From Clostridia bacterium (GTDB taxonomy: Bacteria; Bacillota; Clostridia; Oscillospirales; Acutalibacteraceae): DNA of 32,706 nt. Position numbers and translations under genes: made by a program. Of this stretch, positions 4,739 through 32,600 are shown one piece after another. Under the pieces are notes generated by a model that saw only the letters and a list, made by a program, of their open reading frames with translations, did not search any database and was not told the DNA's origin. The DNA lies in the NCBI GenBank assembly GCA_017942105.1, contig JAGAVE010000096.1, positions 1-32,706 on the forward strand, read 5' to 3'. Every line of letters begins with the position of its first letter. Within the stretch, counting starts at the first letter, position 1.

Positions 4739-4915
4739 ATGGTTTATGTGAAAACAACAAACGGAGTGACTTCAGTAATTGACGGAAATAAAATTGAAAA
4801 AATTGGTGATGAATATTTCATAACTAAAGATGCCGAATTGATAGGTGTTTTCGATGTTGGTGTCATTCAATTTATTTACAAAACAAGAACGAAGGGAAAA
4901 ACACATGAATTATGA
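4739..4915 (+). CDS. Small linker protein between PAPS-reductase-like and helicase-methylase genes
   Basis: A 58-residue protein starting at ATG 4739, seven bases after the previous stop; AGGAG (4722-4726) is inside the end of the previous gene. It is rich in short beta-like stretches (TSVIDGNKIEKIGDEYFIT, VGVIQFIYKT), with no membrane segment or known motif. Its last 11 bases overlap the start of the helicase-methylase gene, so the three are translated together. It may be a small subunit or adaptor of that cassette, but that is only context. Confidence 0.6.
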   Translation: MVYVKTTNGVTSVIDGNKIEKIGDEYFITKDAELIGVFDVGVIQFIYKTRTKGKTHEL

Positions 4916-7403
4916 TGATTTTTTAAATACAAAAATATGTGTCGCTGAAGAAAGCGGATTTGATGTTAAAGATGAAGAAATCAGCGAAGCATTAAAACCG
5001 CATCAGCGTGAAGCCGTTAAATGGGCTTGCAAAGGCGGTCGCAGAGCGTTGTTTGAAAAGTTCGGTCTTGGCAAGACAATACAAGAACTTGAATATTGCA
5101 GACTTGTTTTAAAACATAATGGTGGCCGTGCATTGCTTATATTGCCCCTGGGTGTTCGACAGGAATTTACACACGATGCAGTTGAATTGTTACATATAGA
5201 TCCTCCGCAATATGTACGAAATAAGAAAGAGATTGAAGAGACATCAGCTGACATTTGCATGACAAATTACGAGCGTGTCAGGGACGGAGATATTGACCCT
5301 CAAAAATTTACTTGTGTTTGTCTTGATGAAGCTGCCGTTCTTCGTTCTTTTGGAAGTAAAACATATCAAACTTTTTTACCTAAATTTAAAGGTATCAAAT
5401 ATAAATTGGTAGCAACAGCCACGCCTGATCCAAACGAATATAAAGAGATTATCCACTACGCAGGCTATCTTGAAGTTATGGATACGGGACAAGCATTAAC
5501 ACGATTTTTTAAGCGTGACAGCACAAAAGCTAATAATTTGACCTTATATCCACATAAAGAAGATGAGTTTTGGCTGTGGGTTTCTTCGTGGGCATTATTC
5601 TTATCAACTCCGTCAGATTTAGGATTTGATGATGCAGGATACAATTTACCCAAAATGGATATCAGGTACCACAAGTTAAAATCCGATATCGTTCAAACTG
5701 TTGACCGAAGAACTGGTCAGTTAGGTATTGAAATGGATGTCGCTCAGGGTCTTGCATCAGCTGCAAAAGAAAAACGAAACAGCCTTGATGCAAGAATTGA
5801 AAAAATGAAGGAAATTGTAAACTCAAACCCTGATGACCATTTTATTTTATGGCATGACCTCGAAGATGAACGAAGGGCAATAAAAAAAGCTCTTCCCGAA
5901 GCAGTAGAGATTTACGGTACACAAGACCTCGATATCAGAGAAAAGAATGTTATTGATTTTGCAAACGGTAAAATCCGCTTACTTGCAACAAAAAAAGAAA
6001 TCAGCGGACAAGGTTGCAATTTTCAAAAATACTGCCACCGTGCGATATTTGTCGGCATTGATTACAAGTTTAATGATTTCATTCAGGCAATACATAGAAT
6101 TTATCGTTTTTTGCAGACCAAACAAGTAATCATTGACATCATTTACACCGAGAATGAGAAAAGCGTACTTGATGAGCTTCTTGCAAAATGGCAACGCTTT
6201 GAATATCAATCAAAAAAGATGTCCGAGCTTGTAAGAAAAAACGGCATCAGCACTAAAACAATTATCGAAAAAATGCAGAGAAGCAAAGGAGTTGAGAGGG
6301 TGCAGGTTAAAGGTGCTAATTATACGGCAGTGCTTAACGATTGTGTTATAGAGACACAGAGAATGGAAAGTGATTCGGTTGATTTGATACATACCTCTAT
6401 CCCTTTTTCAAATCATTATGAGTATACACCGAGCTACAACGATTTCGGTCACAATTCGGGCAACGAAACATTCTTTGAACAGATGGATTATTTAACACCA
6501 GAGTTATTGAGAATCCTTAAGCCGGGCAGAGTGGCGGCAATTCATGTTAAAAATCGTGTGATGTTCGGTAATGCAACAGGTGACGGAATGCCGACAATCG
6601 ACCCATTCCGTGAAATGACAGTATTTCACTATATTAAACATGGATTCAAGTATATGGGTGAAATTGTAGTTTTGACTGATGTTGTCAGGGAGAATAATCA
6701 GACTTATCGGCTCGGATGGACTGAGCAATGCAAAGACGGAACAAAAATGGGAGTTGGTTGTCCTGAATATGTATTGCTGTTCAGAAAGTTGCCGACAGAC
6801 AAAACAAAAGCATATGCTGATAAGCCTGTTGTAAAAACCAAAGAAGAATACTCAAGAGCACAATGGCAACTTGATGCTCATTCTTTCTATCGTTCATCAG
6901 GTGACAGATTGTTAAGCAAGGATGAAATTATCAAGATGCCGATAGATAAACTTCAGAAAGTATACAAACAATATTCGGTATCGAATATCTATGATTTTTC
7001 AAGCCATGTTGAAATGACAAATCAACTCGACAAAGAAGGTCGTTTACCGGCAACCTTTATGATTATGCAACCTGCTTCTTGGTCTGACTTTATATGGGAC
7101 GATATTAACAGAATGAGAACGCTCAATACTACGCAAAGTCAGCGGAATCAGAATCTCCATGTTTGTCCTTTACAGTTGGATATTGTGGAAAGAATAATCA
7201 ACCGTTATTCAAATGAAGGTGAGCTTGTGTTGGATCCTTTTGGCGGTCTTATGACAGTACCGTTAACGGCGATAAAAATGAATCGCAAAGGATACGGAAT
7301 TGAGCTTAACGCTGATTATTTCCGTGACGGTGTCGGTTATCTCAAACAGTTTGAAGAGCAACAAGAACAGCTTAGTCTATTTGATTTTTTTAAGGAGACT
7401 TGA
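4905..7403 (+). CDS. SNF2/DEAD-like helicase fused to a DNA N4/N6 methyltransferase
   Basis: An 832-residue two-part enzyme. Residues 30-430 are a superfamily 2 helicase: HQ at 33-34, Walker A FGLGKT near 53-58, DEAA near 141-144, TATP near 171-174, and motif VI QAIHRIYR near 393-400. Residues 465-815 are a beta-class amino-methyltransferase with motif IV near 496-500 before motif I (DPFGG near 776-780) and a HVCPLQ segment in between. Motif IV reads TSIPF, not the usual TSPPY/DPPY. No specificity domain or nuclease is seen. ATG at 4905 (AGGGA upstream) is preferred to the longer frame because the previous gene covers it. It probably moves on DNA and methylates adenine or cytosine, either for protection from host restriction or together with the upstream PAPS-reductase-like protein. 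Confidence 0.9.
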   Translation: MNYDDFLNTKICVAEESGFDVKDEEISEALKPHQREAVKWACKGGRRALFEKFGLGKTIQELEYCRLVLKHNGGRALLILPLGVRQEFTHDAVELLHIDPPQYVRNKKEIEETSADICMTNYERVRDGDIDPQKFTCVCLDEAAVLRSFGSKTYQTFLPKFKGIKYKLVATATPDPNEYKEIIHYAGYLEVMDTGQALTRFFKRDSTKANNLTLYPHKEDEFWLWVSSWALFLSTPSDLGFDDAGYNLPKMDIRYHKLKSDIVQTVDRRTGQLGIEMDVAQGLASAAKEKRNSLDARIEKMKEIVNSNPDDHFILWHDLEDERRAIKKALPEAVEIYGTQDLDIREKNVIDFANGKIRLLATKKEISGQGCNFQKYCHRAIFVGIDYKFNDFIQAIHRIYRFLQTKQVIIDIIYTENEKSVLDELLAKWQRFEYQSKKMSELVRKNGISTKTIIEKMQRSKGVERVQVKGANYTAVLNDCVIETQRMESDSVDLIHTSIPFSNHYEYTPSYNDFGHNSGNETFFEQMDYLTPELLRILKPGRVAAIHVKNRVMFGNATGDGMPTIDPFREMTVFHYIKHGFKYMGEIVVLTDVVRENNQTYRLGWTEQCKDGTKMGVGCPEYVLLFRKLPTDKTKAYADKPVVKTKEEYSRAQWQLDAHSFYRSSGDRLLSKDEIIKMPIDKLQKVYKQYSVSNIYDFSSHVEMTNQLDKEGRLPATFMIMQPASWSDFIWDDINRMRTLNTTQSQRNQNLHVCPLQLDIVERIINRYSNEGELVLDPFGGLMTVPLTAIKMNRKGYGIELNADYFRDGVGYLKQFEEQQEQLSLFDFFKET

Positions 7404-30428: not shown

Positions 30429-30726
30429 TATCATCCTGACAGCGCTTGTTATCGTTGTCGCAATCATATGTGCATACAGAAAGATGGGAACGACCATCCG
30501 ATCTAAAGCGACTTTTCTTATCGCTGAGGTTGCCGAGCTCGATATCCTCGGCCCCGAAAAGATGCAGAGGGTAGTTAACGAGCTTTACGAAAAGTATGTC
30601 CCGGACTTCTTCAAATCCTTTATGAATAAACAGAAGCTCGAAGAAATCGCACAGGGTATTTACAATGATATGAAACTGTTTACTGAGAATGATCTGAAGG
30701 ATTCGGTGTATAAGGAGGAATTGTAA
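30406..30726 (+). CDS. Holin, LL-H family (superfamily 6)
   Basis: A 106-residue protein: one N-terminal membrane segment (residues 4-24, TINIIDIILTALVIVVAIIC), then a long cytoplasmic amphipathic part (KMGTTIRSKATFLIAEVAEL ... VVNELYEKYVPDFFKSFMNK), which is the pattern of the LL-H holin family. It would form membrane holes late in infection and release the endolysin. GGAGGATGT precedes ATG 30406, which lies in the end of the previous gene; the next gene begins at its stop (TAATG). Confidence 0.85.
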   Translation: MNTINIIDIILTALVIVVAIICAYRKMGTTIRSKATFLIAEVAELDILGPEKMQRVVNELYEKYVPDFFKSFMNKQKLEEIAQGIYNDMKLFTENDLKDSVYKEEL

Positions 30727-31130
30727 TGCTTGAAAAAACAACACATTACTTTGACTTTGGAGAAGCTCTCCGTAAGCTCAAGGAAGGTAAGAAGGTTGCC
30801 CGAAGAGGTTGGAACGGAAAGGGGATGTACCTCTGGCTGTTGCCTCCTGCGACAATCAAAAAGGAATGGTGCAGGGACGAAAAACTTCTTGAATGCTTTG
30901 GCGAAAGTGATGAGATTTATTGCCTTGGCTCAATCCGTATGTATACCCACGATAGCACTGGCAGAACAGCGGTTCTCACAGGTTGGCTTGCAAGTCAGTC
31001 TGATATGCTCTCTGAGGATTGGTATGAAGTTGACGAACACTGCAAGTTACCGGCAAGTAACGAAACAACGCAGAATGAGGCTTCCGGCTCATATTCTCAC
31101 ATCGAAAACCGTTTTCAGCAAGTAAAATAA
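30726..31130 (+). CDS. Tad2-like protein (DUF2829), putative anti-Thoeris sponge
   Basis: A 134-residue protein with the DUF2829/Tad2 pattern: FGEALRKLKEGKKVARRGWNGKG at the start of the domain, YLWLLPP, and near its end WLASQSDMLSEDW. Proteins of this family (Tad2) bind cyclic ADP-ribose-type signals and switch off Thoeris defence; others may bind different cyclic nucleotides. Residues 1-100 are the domain and the last 35 are an uneven tail. It is the last gene of the late operon, overlapping the holin stop by one base (TAATG). The family is clear; the ligand is not, and direct anti-defence action is inferred. Confidence 0.88.
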   Translation: MLEKTTHYFDFGEALRKLKEGKKVARRGWNGKGMYLWLLPPATIKKEWCRDEKLLECFGESDEIYCLGSIRMYTHDSTGRTAVLTGWLASQSDMLSEDWYEVDEHCKLPASNETTQNEASGSYSHIENRFQQVK

Positions 31131-31345
31131 GCCGTTTTCTAATTTACAACGAGCAGCTTTGAGTATTAAGTTAGTAAAAAGTATCATATTTAACTAACTT
31201 AATCATCTCTTGCAAGTAACAAGCAAGTTAAACTATATTGCTTTTGAACCGTAGTTTGCATTTTATATGTGAATAATGGTAAGTATACTTGCTATTTTAT
31301 AATATAACCTGCATCTTTTCTGAAATTATGCACGATACGAATAAC

Positions 31346-31394
31346 GCCCCTATCGAAAGACATTCCGTCAATCGGTAGGGGCTGTTTTTGTTTT
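31346..31394 (+). terminator. Rho-independent terminator of the late operon
   Basis: An 11-base-pair stem, 31346-31356 with 31372-31382 (GCCCCTATCGA against TCGGTAGGGGC, one G-T pair), loop of 15, followed by TGTTTTTGTTTT. It lies 215 bases after the Tad2-like stop and would stop the late transcript before the AbiF-like unit. Confidence 0.88.
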
Positions 31395-31534: not shown

Positions 31535-31563
31535 TTGATTTTTTCGAATATTTTGAGTATTAT
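31535..31563 (+). promoter_or_regulatory. Promoter of the AbiF-like unit
   Basis: A -35 TTGATT (31535-31540), a 17-base spacer and a -10 TATTAT (31558-31563). Transcription should begin near 31570, exactly where the structured RNA starts. It makes this unit independent of the phage late operon and active in the lysogen. Confidence 0.72.
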
Positions 31564-31569
31564 ATTAGT

Positions 31570-31630
31570 GACAGAGCCCCTCACGCTTAGGCGTACAGCA
31601 ATGTGCGAACCGCGGACCAGGAGGGGACTT
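31570..31630 (+). ncRNA. Structured RNA upstream of the Abi gene (abiF RNA-like)
   Basis: The RNA begins at the predicted start site. An outer stem CCCCTC (31577-31582) with GAGGGG (31621-31626) encloses hairpin ACGC-TTAG-GCGT (31583-31594) and a second hairpin (31604-31614; T-GCG, loop AAC, CGC-G). This leaves a compact three-way element 21 bases before the Abi ATG. From memory, a conserved structured RNA (abiF motif) has been reported before Abi-family genes and acts as an RNA antitoxin for these HEPN proteins. I did not compare it to a covariance model. Confidence 0.68.
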
Positions 31631-31650
31631 ATTATTTTATAGGTGATATA

Positions 31651-32508
31651 ATGTCTGAAGTTAAAAAATTTTTGTGTTATGAAGAACAGATTGAACACCT
31701 TAAAAGTGTAGGATTAACAATCGAAGAAGATTCTGTGGCAAAAGAAATCTTATCAAAAGTGAATTATTACCGGCTGATAAATGCGTATTCGTTAGGACTA
31801 TATAGCAGTAGGAATCCTGAGGATAGATATATTGAAGGAGTAACATTCTATCAGTTATATGACCTTTATCAGTTTGATTCTGAGCTAAGACAGGTTCTCT
31901 CTGTGTTGCTTGAAAATTTTGAAATATTATTCAGAACAAAACTTGCATACTATATTGGTGAAAAATATGGTGCGTTAGGTTATTTAAGTCCTGAAATATT
32001 CAAAAATGATGAATATCACACGCAGTTTCTTGAGGATTTGGAACGAGAAAAAACACATCAAAGTAAATCTCCGATAATAGAACATCATAATGAGCATTAT
32101 GAAGGACAGTTACCGATATGGGTTTTGGTTGAAATTGCGTCTTTTGGAATGATTTCAAAAATGTATAGCAATTTAAATGACGAAGATCAAAAAAATCTTG
32201 CAAAGGAATTTAATGTGAAAGCGTATTATCTAAAAAATTGGCTTCGTTCATTTGTTGAAATACGAAATGTTTGTGCGCACTATGGAAGATTATATAATAA
32301 AGTATTGACATTTCCGCCACCGTTATTTAGGGATATGAACTTCGATAATACAAGAGTTTTTTCAGTGTTGTATATTTTAACTAGATTCGCTGATGATAAG
32401 CTATGGCTAAGGCAGGTGCTAAAACTCAAAGTATCATTTGAAGAGCATAAATCTGTTGAATTACATAAAGTTGGTTTCCCTGAAGATTGGGAGAAGCTTT
32501 GGTCATAA
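31651..32508 (+). CDS. Abi-family (Abi_2, AbiF/AbiD-like) HEPN protein
   Basis: A 285-residue abortive-infection protein starting at ATG 31651 (AGGTGATATA upstream). The N-terminus (YEEQIEHLKSVGLTIEED, then SKVNYYRLINAY) and the helical core (ELRQVLSVLLENFEILFRTKLA) fit the Abi_2 family. R205-N-V-C-A-H210 (RNVCAHYGRLYN) is the Rx4-6H catalytic motif of HEPN ribonucleases. Such proteins cut RNA and stop growth of phage-infected cells. It has its own promoter, a structured RNA in its leader, a terminator on either side and AT-rich DNA, so it is a self-contained defence cargo. AbiF proteins have been proposed as relatives of the ancestor of Cas13 (from memory). Which AbiF or AbiD subgroup it belongs to is not certain. 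Confidence 0.88.
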   Translation: MSEVKKFLCYEEQIEHLKSVGLTIEEDSVAKEILSKVNYYRLINAYSLGLYSSRNPEDRYIEGVTFYQLYDLYQFDSELRQVLSVLLENFEILFRTKLAYYIGEKYGALGYLSPEIFKNDEYHTQFLEDLEREKTHQSKSPIIEHHNEHYEGQLPIWVLVEIASFGMISKMYSNLNDEDQKNLAKEFNVKAYYLKNWLRSFVEIRNVCAHYGRLYNKVLTFPPPLFRDMNFDNTRVFSVLYILTRFADDKLWLRQVLKLKVSFEEHKSVELHKVGFPEDWEKLWS

Positions 32509-32565: not shown

Positions 32566-32600
32566 ATCCCCCTGCTCACAACACCGGAGCAGGGGGATTT
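32566..32600. terminator. Bidirectional terminator
   Basis: A 12-base-pair perfect stem, 32566-32577 with 32587-32598 (ATCCCCCTGCTC arm), loop of nine, followed by TTTTC on the + strand. On the minus strand it is preceded by the last codons of a leftward gene and followed by GAGTTTGTTTTATT. It ends both the Abi transcript and the leftward gene. Confidence 0.85.

What the first reader, a model, noticed from the sequence alone, without database searches (positions are those of the whole stretch)
31535..32508. A complete AbiF-like HEPN toxin unit with its own promoter and a structured leader RNA
Sequence shows: -35/-10 with 17-base spacing; a transcript start coinciding with a compact RNA (outer stem 31577-31582/31621-31626 plus two hairpins); then an Abi_2 protein with RNVCAH. 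Established (from memory): AbiF-type proteins carry a conserved upstream RNA that works as an RNA antitoxin, and they have been linked to the origin of Cas13. Inference: this prophage carries an RNA-controlled HEPN ribonuclease as defence cargo, shielded by terminators on both sides. The exact RNA subtype and how it is released are open.
Basis: partly seen in the sequence, partly recalled or inferred. Interest (0 to 1): 0.85.

Follow-up and report, generated by a model that had tools for sequence, protein, structure and literature searches.

The report
Prophage AbiF toxin with RNA leader
A bacterial prophage carries a gene for an AbiF-type RNA-cutting toxin and, directly in front of it, a small folded RNA of the kind known to hold such toxins in check; it is a new, divergent member of a known phage-defence system that the standard RNA database model misses.

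Summary
The finding is real. Window 31651-32508 encodes an Abi_2/AbiF protein (Pfam E 2.9e-50; PDB AbiF 8vz6 E 1.4e-26) with RNVCAH at residues 205-210. Rfam's abiF model (RF03085) finds nothing in the leader. A covariance model built from 14 relatives' leaders, window left out, hits 31571-31628 at 34.4 bits (E 4.6e-7; next best in the window 9.4 bits). Over 64 distinct RNAs, 6 of 9 pairs change on both sides (105 cells against 30.5 shuffled). A -10 commonly lies 7 nt before the RNA, and a U-rich tract follows it in 59 of 64, so it may double as an attenuator. Best reading: a single-motif AbiF/abiF-RNA toxin-antitoxin cargo, like C. difficile AbiF-RCd22 and PbAbiF-AbiFr; function is inferred from homologues, not tested. 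Side result: the published 50-b abiD1 leader transcript of Lactococcus coincides with a match to this model. New member of a known kind.

The parts
31535..31563 (+). promoter: -35 TTGATT 31535-31540, -10 TATTAT 31558-31563
   Evidence: -10 lies 7 nt before the RNA, the commonest gap (34 of 64 rows). The -35 matches only 4 of 6.
31571..31628 (+). abiF-class RNA, single motif, with enlarged apical part
   Evidence: R1 (window excluded from training) 34.4 bits, E 4.6e-7, filters off
31577..31626 (+). outer stem CCCCUC 31577-31582 / GAGGGG 31621-31626
   Evidence: covariation; pair probability 0.98-1.0
31584..31614 (+). inner stem CGC 31584-31586 / GCG 31612-31614
   Evidence: over 64 distinct rows the first pair is C-G in 61 (3 unpaired), the third C-G in 64, the middle pair G-C in 43 and A-U in 21; not favoured by the window's own energy
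31592..31607 (+). apical hairpin CGUACA-GCAA-UGUGCG
   Evidence: two double changes and two one-sided changes against the nearest relative L096, all paired; long loops fold better than shuffled ones
31615..31620 (+). single-stranded linker GACCAG between inner and outer 3' strands; by analogy with AbiFr perhaps the inhibitory bulge (inferred)
   Evidence: ACCA at this place in 34 of 63 other distinct rows, GCGGACCA in 21 of 63
31629..31640 (+). U-rich tract after the RNA (9 T of 12, interrupted by A): possible attenuator tail
31641..31645 (+). ribosome-binding site AGGTG
   Evidence: sequence
31651..32508 (+). AbiF-like Abi_2 HEPN protein, 285 aa
   Evidence: Pfam PF07751 E 2.9e-50, PADLOC AbiD E 2.7e-92, phrog_2158 E 6.6e-72, PDB 8vz6 E 1.4e-26
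32263..32280 (+). codons of RNVCAH (R205, H210), HEPN active-site motif
   Evidence: aligns with R210/H215 of 8vz6; R, N, C, A and H invariant in the 39 rows of A5; in wider relatives the C and A vary (e.g. L006, L043, L057, L060)
31343..31386 (+). intrinsic-terminator-like hairpin before the unit
   Evidence: -24.5 kcal/mol, z -6.1
32566..32598 (.). terminator-like hairpin after the unit
   Evidence: -24.5 kcal/mol, z -5.6

Best explanation
A prophage-borne toxin-antitoxin unit of the AbiF kind. One promoter starts transcription at about 31570. Most transcripts would end in the U-rich tract just after the folded leader, leaving a ~58-70 nt single-motif abiF-class RNA. A minority read through and make the AbiF protein. 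AbiF forms a HEPN dimer that cuts RNA, and each monomer is held inactive by one copy of the RNA. When infection or stress lowers the RNA or raises read-through, free AbiF cuts RNA and stops growth. Shown here: the protein family and active-site motif, the RNA and its covarying fold, the recurring order promoter-RNA-U-tract-RBS-gene, and shared inheritance of RNA subtype and toxin. Inferred from homologues: RNase toxicity, neutralisation by the RNA, one RNA per monomer. Inferred from anatomy: attenuation. Speculative: the trigger, and defence as the benefit.
For: Protein. RNA: model R1 from 14 relatives without the window hits 31571-31628 at E 4.6e-7, second best in the window E 1.8 (the tool calls such E-values rough). 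Covariation: A2, 13 distinct rows, 5 of 9 pairs changed on both sides, 14 cells against 4.6 +/- 1.9, 0 of 500 shuffles; A4, 64 distinct rows, 105 cells against 30.5 +/- 4.0, 0 of 500. Nearest relative L096 (48% identity): 15 of 15 pairs kept, 4 with double changes. Place: 61 of 67 R1 matches lie 0-80 nt before the abi gene on its strand. U-tract: 59 of 64 rows against 26% of 1974 control positions. Toxin tree: the inner-stem type needs 3 changes over 57 RNA-bearing rows; in the table of groups GUG needs 3 (shuffled mean 17.5) and GCG 5 (22.7), as low in 0 of 500. Published function in homologues: PMC12373285, PMC12737573.
Against: No expression or toxicity data for this copy. Rfam RF03085 does not reach its threshold here and is not among the matches up to E 10. 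Only one motif, whereas RCd22 has two. The window's U-tract is interrupted and its -35 is poor. Not every covariation measure beats the shuffles: the number of further pair types does not (280 of 500 in A2, 319 of 500 in A4), and 13 of 500 reach the number of doubly changed pairs in A4. R1 finds an RNA in only part of the Abi_2 loci given to it: 27 of 63 sources and 34 of 54 at E <= 1. A clade of 8 relatives lacks an R1 match and keeps the active-site motif, so the RNA is not indispensable to every Abi_2 protein. 6 of 16 R1 matches in 245 genomes have no Abi_2 gene in the ~1.5 kb held on each side, so the RNA is not strictly tied to the toxin.
Confidence: 0.85

Rival explanations
1. The leader is only a regulatory attenuator or translation switch of an abi gene, sensed by a phage protein (as published for AbiD1), and the RNA does not itself bind and inhibit the toxin.
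For: The RNA sits where a terminator would, with a U-tract. For AbiD1 the published control is at translation, by phage protein Orf1 (PMC2661086, passages).
Against: The single-stranded linker and inner stem are conserved beyond what a terminator needs, RNA subtype follows the toxin tree, and RCd22 neutralises in trans (PMC12373285). The AU-rich hairpin over the RBS is not a family feature: mean z -0.27 over 62 leaders.
Confidence: 0.1
2. The protein is an unconstrained or decayed Abi_2 gene, a passenger without function.
For: Some relatives are truncated (L026; L091), and R1 RNAs without an Abi_2 gene exist.
Against: Intact 285-aa frame, RBS, all residues that are invariant over 39 aligned proteins present, RNA pairs kept by double changes against L096.
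Confidence: 0.04
3. The RNA match is chance (a terminator-like GC stem) and the leader is unrelated to abiF RNA.
For: Rfam RF03085 does not match; energy z-score of the RNA is only -2.2.
Against: Model trained without the window: E 4.6e-7 against a next best of E 1.8; linker GCGGACCA, promoter gap and stem all in register.
Confidence: 0.01

Closest known systems
C. difficile AbiF_Cd with RNA RCd22 (phages phi027, phiC2, phiCD2301)
   Same: Prophage-borne, Abi_2 protein (phiC2 copy 42% identical), RNA directly upstream from one promoter, R/H motif, near the lysis module
   Different: RCd22 has two abiF motifs and a separate terminator; the window has one motif that runs straight into its own U-rich tract and carries an apical hairpin
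PbAbiF-AbiFr (PDB 8vz6)
   Same: Homologous protein over residues 11-282 (E 1.4e-26); R210/H215 align with R205/H210; one RNA per monomer would fit the single motif here
   Different: Distant in sequence; the RNA letters of 8vz6 were not available to me, so the RNAs were not compared
Lactococcus AbiD1 (pIL105)
   Same: Leader of 76 nt (80 here); the only visible transcript without chloramphenicol (50 b) stops just before the gene (PMC2661086, passages). That stretch holds an R1 match (18.5 bits, E 5.7e-4 in 2507 bases)
   Different: Far branch of the protein tree; unbroken U-run; published activation by phage Orf1 and cold; MFE fold not the family fold
Rfam RF03085 abiF RNA
   Same: Outer stem, one unpaired base, 3-bp inner stem, unpaired 3' linker; 5 of the 14 rows that trained R1 were seen to pass RF03085's own threshold (L013, L041, L042, L081, L082)
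   Different: RF03085 is 37 nt with an 11-nt loop; the window loop is 25 nt and the model does not score

Membership tests
AbiD/F (Abi_2, HEPN) proteins | Pfam PF07751 over cut-off, full-length | tested here: met
   171.6 bits, cut-off 25.6, profile 1-184 of 184
AbiD/F (Abi_2, HEPN) proteins | RNxxxH active-site motif aligned with proven residues | tested here: met
   R205/H210 align with R210/H215 of 8vz6; R/H double mutants of AbiF_Cd and PbAbiF inactive (PMC12373285)
AbiD/F (Abi_2, HEPN) proteins | RNase activity and toxicity | not testable with these tools
   needs bench work
Rfam RF03085 abiF RNA as curated | score over gathering threshold | tested here: not met
   hence not filed as a member of RF03085 itself
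abiF RNA class in the wider sense (model R1, made here) | outer stem, inner stem, linker, in register, by a model trained without the window | tested here: met
   E 4.6e-7
abiF RNA class in the wider sense (model R1, made here) | compensatory changes in relatives | tested here: met
abiF RNA class in the wider sense (model R1, made here) | directly upstream of an Abi_2 gene, same strand | tested here: met
   RNA ends 22 nt before the ATG (31628, 31651); 61 of 67 matches likewise within 80 nt
Type III toxin-antitoxin system | RNA and toxin from one promoter with a terminator between | tested here: inconclusive
   no promoter-like site listed between RNA and gene on the + strand; U-tract present but interrupted
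Type III toxin-antitoxin system | tandem repeats of the RNA motif (called a key feature in PMC12373285) | tested here: not met
   one convincing R1 match in the window, the rest at E 1.8 or worse; so it may work like type III but is not filed as a canonical member
Type III toxin-antitoxin system | RNA neutralises the toxin by binding | not testable with these tools
   shown only for homologues
Cas13 / type VI CRISPR | two HEPN motifs in one protein and a CRISPR array | tested here: not met
   one R....H match in the 285 aa; no CRISPR array was searched for. Kinship of Cas13 with AbiD/F is from PMC12165695, passages

The most novel reading that the evidence does not exclude
The abiF RNA is a class-wide two-in-one device, antitoxin and intrinsic terminator in the same fold, much wider than Rfam's model. 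The classical 50-b abiD1 transcript of Lactococcus is such an RNA, so AbiD1 would be an RNA-antitoxin system whose antitoxin has been seen on gels since the 1990s without being named as one. Copies without a toxin gene (5 of 16 places, one of them beside a probable abi remnant, plus one before a RhuM gene) could protect their carrier against foreign AbiF.
Probability: 0.45. Interest if true: 0.65.

Novelty: new member of a known kind. Interest (0 to 1): 0.5.

Why it matters
AbiF with its RNA is the proposed ancestor type of Cas13, and its RNAs look under-annotated. Of 20 loci that all carry an R1 match (9 of which helped to train R1), Rfam's model passes its threshold in 5. In an earlier batch of 20 loci, of which R1 matches 7 (one of them a training row), it passes in 1. 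A wider model makes it possible to ask how the antitoxin RNA diversified with its toxin, whether its fold is also the terminator that sets the toxin dose, and whether AbiD1's phage trigger acts on that RNA.

Tried and rejected
Rfam scans of the window: no abiF match. A search of 300 family genomes with the leader as DNA (list cut by the tool) found, besides the window itself, only short matches; most of those listed fall in the A/T-rich flanks, a few inside the RNA, none spans it. Two viral scans with single proteins found no relative; the scan with alignment A3 did (112 relatives, best 80 kept). RBS-sequestering hairpin in the leader: predicted for the window but not a family feature. Longer frame from GTG 31603: rejected, it would start inside the RNA, and relatives start near the ATG. 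RNA-RhuM pairing (L187): 0 of 15 viral RhuM loci have an R1 match at E <= 1, so taken as a single event. AbiD1 leader, results against me: its lowest-energy fold is not the family fold (z 0.09), one outer pair of the R1 match is non-standard, and Rfam does not hit it. R1 also scores the two published motifs of phiC2 weakly (12.7 and 11.6 bits, E 0.32 and 0.62), so R1 is itself narrow; Rfam finds one of those two.

Rows dropped: L016 and L052 from the training set because their linker is one base shorter and they fell out of register; duplicates L056 and L080 and the shifted L035 and L036 left out. A4 keeps matches at E <= 0.1 only, from 64 of 72 sources that I chose mostly because they had matched before, so 64 of 72 is no rate (L006, L033, L035, L036, L039, L062, L064, L066 fell out). 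Searches gave R1 63 and 54 sources, with training rows or near-copies left out by me. A5 holds the window protein and 38 of the search for related loci proteins, chosen by length and to avoid near-copies. The tree holds 8 RNA-less loci picked by me; more loci lacked an R1 match, some with a similar RNA by eye. The 1995 abiD1 paper is not held.

Full report
What the sequence holds. The unit lies at the right end of a 32.7 kb contig (G000:C116) with terminase, portal, tape-measure, tail and amidase genes and an S24 repressor, so a prophage or phage contig; its boundaries were not sought. The gene 31651-32508 encodes 285 aa with Pfam Abi_2 (E 2.9e-50), PADLOC AbiD (E 2.7e-92) and phrog_2158 (E 6.6e-72). 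NCBIfam gave nothing at E 0.01. The only solved relative by sequence at E <= 1 is 8vz6 (E 1.4e-26), which the review PMC12737573 (passages) names as PbAbiF with its RNA. R205 and H210 align with R210 and H215 there. R205, N206, C208, A209 and H210 are invariant in 21 of 21 and 39 of 39 aligned proteins, sets I chose without truncated ones. Over the 86 loci translated (window copies and near-copies included) RN...H is found by pattern in 85; L026 lacks it and in L091 the match is elsewhere, both being truncated. The C and A between vary in several (e.g. L006, L043, L057, L060).

The RNA. Rfam's abiF model does not score in the window. Relatives about 28-48% identical nevertheless often show one recurring element just before the gene: a 6-7 bp outer stem, usually one unpaired base, a 3-bp inner stem CGC/GCG or CAC/GUG, a loop of 11 or more nt, a linker such as GACCAN or UCCCA, then the outer 3' strand and a U-run. 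I built model R1 from 14 short-loop relatives, window excluded. It hits the window at 31571-31628 with 34.4 bits, E 4.6e-7; the next of 9 matches at E <= 10 has 9.4 bits, E 1.8. Among Abi_2 loci outside the training set it matched 27 of 63 sources, window included, and 34 of 54 at E <= 1. In A2 (13 distinct rows) 5 of 9 pairs have changes on both sides, 14 cells against 4.6 +/- 1.9 shuffled, while the inner stem does not vary there. In A4 (67 matches, 64 distinct rows, window included) 6 of 9 pairs do, 105 cells against 30.5 +/- 4.0, 0 of 500; slid structures reach at most 11 cells. Two measures are weaker: further pair types do not exceed the shuffles (280 and 319 of 500), and 13 of 500 reach the 6 pairs in A4. 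A4 is fitted to the model and leans towards it.

The apical part. In 31 of 64 distinct rows the loop has 14 nt or more. Folded alone these sum to -171 kcal/mol against -50 +/- 8.5 for base-shuffled loops, lowest -79 of 200 sums; one of the 31 does not fold, and a few rows are near-copies. The closest protein relative, L096 (48%), has an RNA of the same length. 15 of 15 consensus pairs are kept, 4 with double and 2 with one-sided changes, among them 2 double changes in the apical hairpin. Its lowest-energy fold holds the family structure. For the window the consensus fold costs -20.0 against an MFE of -20.6 kcal/mol, and its inner stem has a pair probability of about 0.2, so that stem is a comparative inference.

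Promoter and tail. All 64 distinct rows have a 5-6 of 6 match to TATAAT 2-13 nt before the RNA (97 of 638 control places do), most often with a gap of 7 nt (34 of 64), as for the window's TATTAT; an equal match at gap 4 also exists there. After the RNA 59 of 64 have at least 5 T in 8 nt, against 26% of 1974 upstream control positions. RNA start to start codon is 63-98 nt, median 74, in 62 leaders that could be scored; the window has 80. So the RNA probably begins at or next to +1, and its fold with the U-tract resembles an intrinsic terminator. In the window the tract is 9 T of 12 but interrupted, and the terminator scan, whose loop limit is 8, listed none.

Link to AbiD1. PMC2661086 (passages read) reports a 76-nt abiD1 leader and, as the only visible transcript unless chloramphenicol is added, a 50-b RNA that stops at a terminator just before the gene. 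In pIL105 (L176), if the 76 nt run up to the base before the ATG, +1 is L176 1291, and the first 50 nt end three T into the run. R1 matches 1292-1337 with 18.5 bits, E 5.7e-4 in 2507 bases or 0.0097 in 42 kb. One outer pair is non-standard, the MFE fold differs, and Rfam does not hit it. I read this as a member of the class. I did not see this stated in the parts of PMC2661086 and PMC12373285 that I read. Library searches for RF03085 (3 of 3 papers listed) and for AbiD1 with type III or antitoxin RNA (8 of 81 listed) showed no title that says it. The paper of Zilberzwige-Tal et al. did not turn up among the 10 of 19 papers listed, and the 1995 abiD1 paper is not held. So I claim no priority.

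Coupling of RNA and toxin. 61 of 67 R1 matches lie 0-80 nt before the abi gene on its strand. Of the other six, three are 84-85 nt away (one of these the first of a tandem pair), one lies inside the frame as my script placed its start (probably misplaced), one is on the other strand and one behind the gene. On a quick IQ-TREE of 68 proteins the inner-stem type needs 3 changes over 57 RNA-bearing rows; in the table of groups GUG needs 3 (shuffled mean 17.5) and GCG 5 (22.7). The window pairs with L096 (SH-aLRT 100). The 8 RNA-less Abi_2 genes that I put in, all from family f26, form one group (100) inside a branch of otherwise GUG-type rows. R1 over 245 genomes of the class gave 16 places in 13 genomes, some of them training rows or near-copies; 10 of 16 loci hold an Abi_2 gene and 6 do not. 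So coupling is strong but not absolute.

Mechanism and comparison. In C. difficile, AbiF is bacteriostatic, its R202/H207 double mutants lose toxicity, and RCd22 lowers expression in cis and neutralises in trans by binding (PMC12373285). In PbAbiF each monomer binds one RNA and bulged bases inhibit the RNase (PMC12737573). The window copy has one motif, so two RNAs per dimer is the likely form (inference). What it works like: AbiF-AbiFr, type III-like. What it is a member of: AbiD/F proteins, and an abiF RNA class wider than RF03085. It fails RF03085's own threshold, and it lacks the repeats of canonical type III systems.

Verdict. Real, well supported, and a new member of a known kind, with a divergent RNA that Rfam's model misses. 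The broader leads (terminator plus antitoxin in one fold, AbiD1's RNA, copies without a toxin) are what a specialist would want tested.

Noticed in passing
window 30726-31127: The gene just before the AbiF unit is Tad2-like (PF11195, E 9.6e-21), a family named for Thoeris anti-defence; a possible anti-defence gene sits beside a defence gene.
   Followed up: no
L187 1501-2553: An R1 RNA (55.5 bits) with a promoter-like sequence stands 23 nt before a RhuM-family gene (PF13310, E 3.2e-104), in the place where abi genes stand. 0 of 15 viral RhuM relatives show it at E <= 1.
   Followed up: partly
L188, L189, L193, L194, L195: R1 RNAs without an Abi_2 gene in the ~1.5 kb held on each side; L189 is followed by what looks like the remnant of an abi start. 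Decayed units or free-standing antitoxin RNAs.
   Followed up: partly
L015, L017, L018, L020, L022, L024, L027, L031: Abi_2 proteins of one family (f26) that group together on the tree, have no R1 match at E <= 1, seem by eye to follow another gene directly in several loci, and keep the RNxCAH motif. How these are controlled is open.
   Followed up: partly
L131 3415-3458, L053 2415-2458, L055 2413-2458: A second R1 match lies behind the abi gene; in L131 and L055, where I read on, a hairpin-like repeat follows.
   Followed up: partly
L135 2342-2446: Two tandem abiF-class motifs before the gene, as in RCd22; its protein groups with the C. difficile one (SH-aLRT 97).
   Followed up: partly
window 4866-7400: One frame holds an SNF2-related domain and an N6/N4 DNA methylase.
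   Followed up: no
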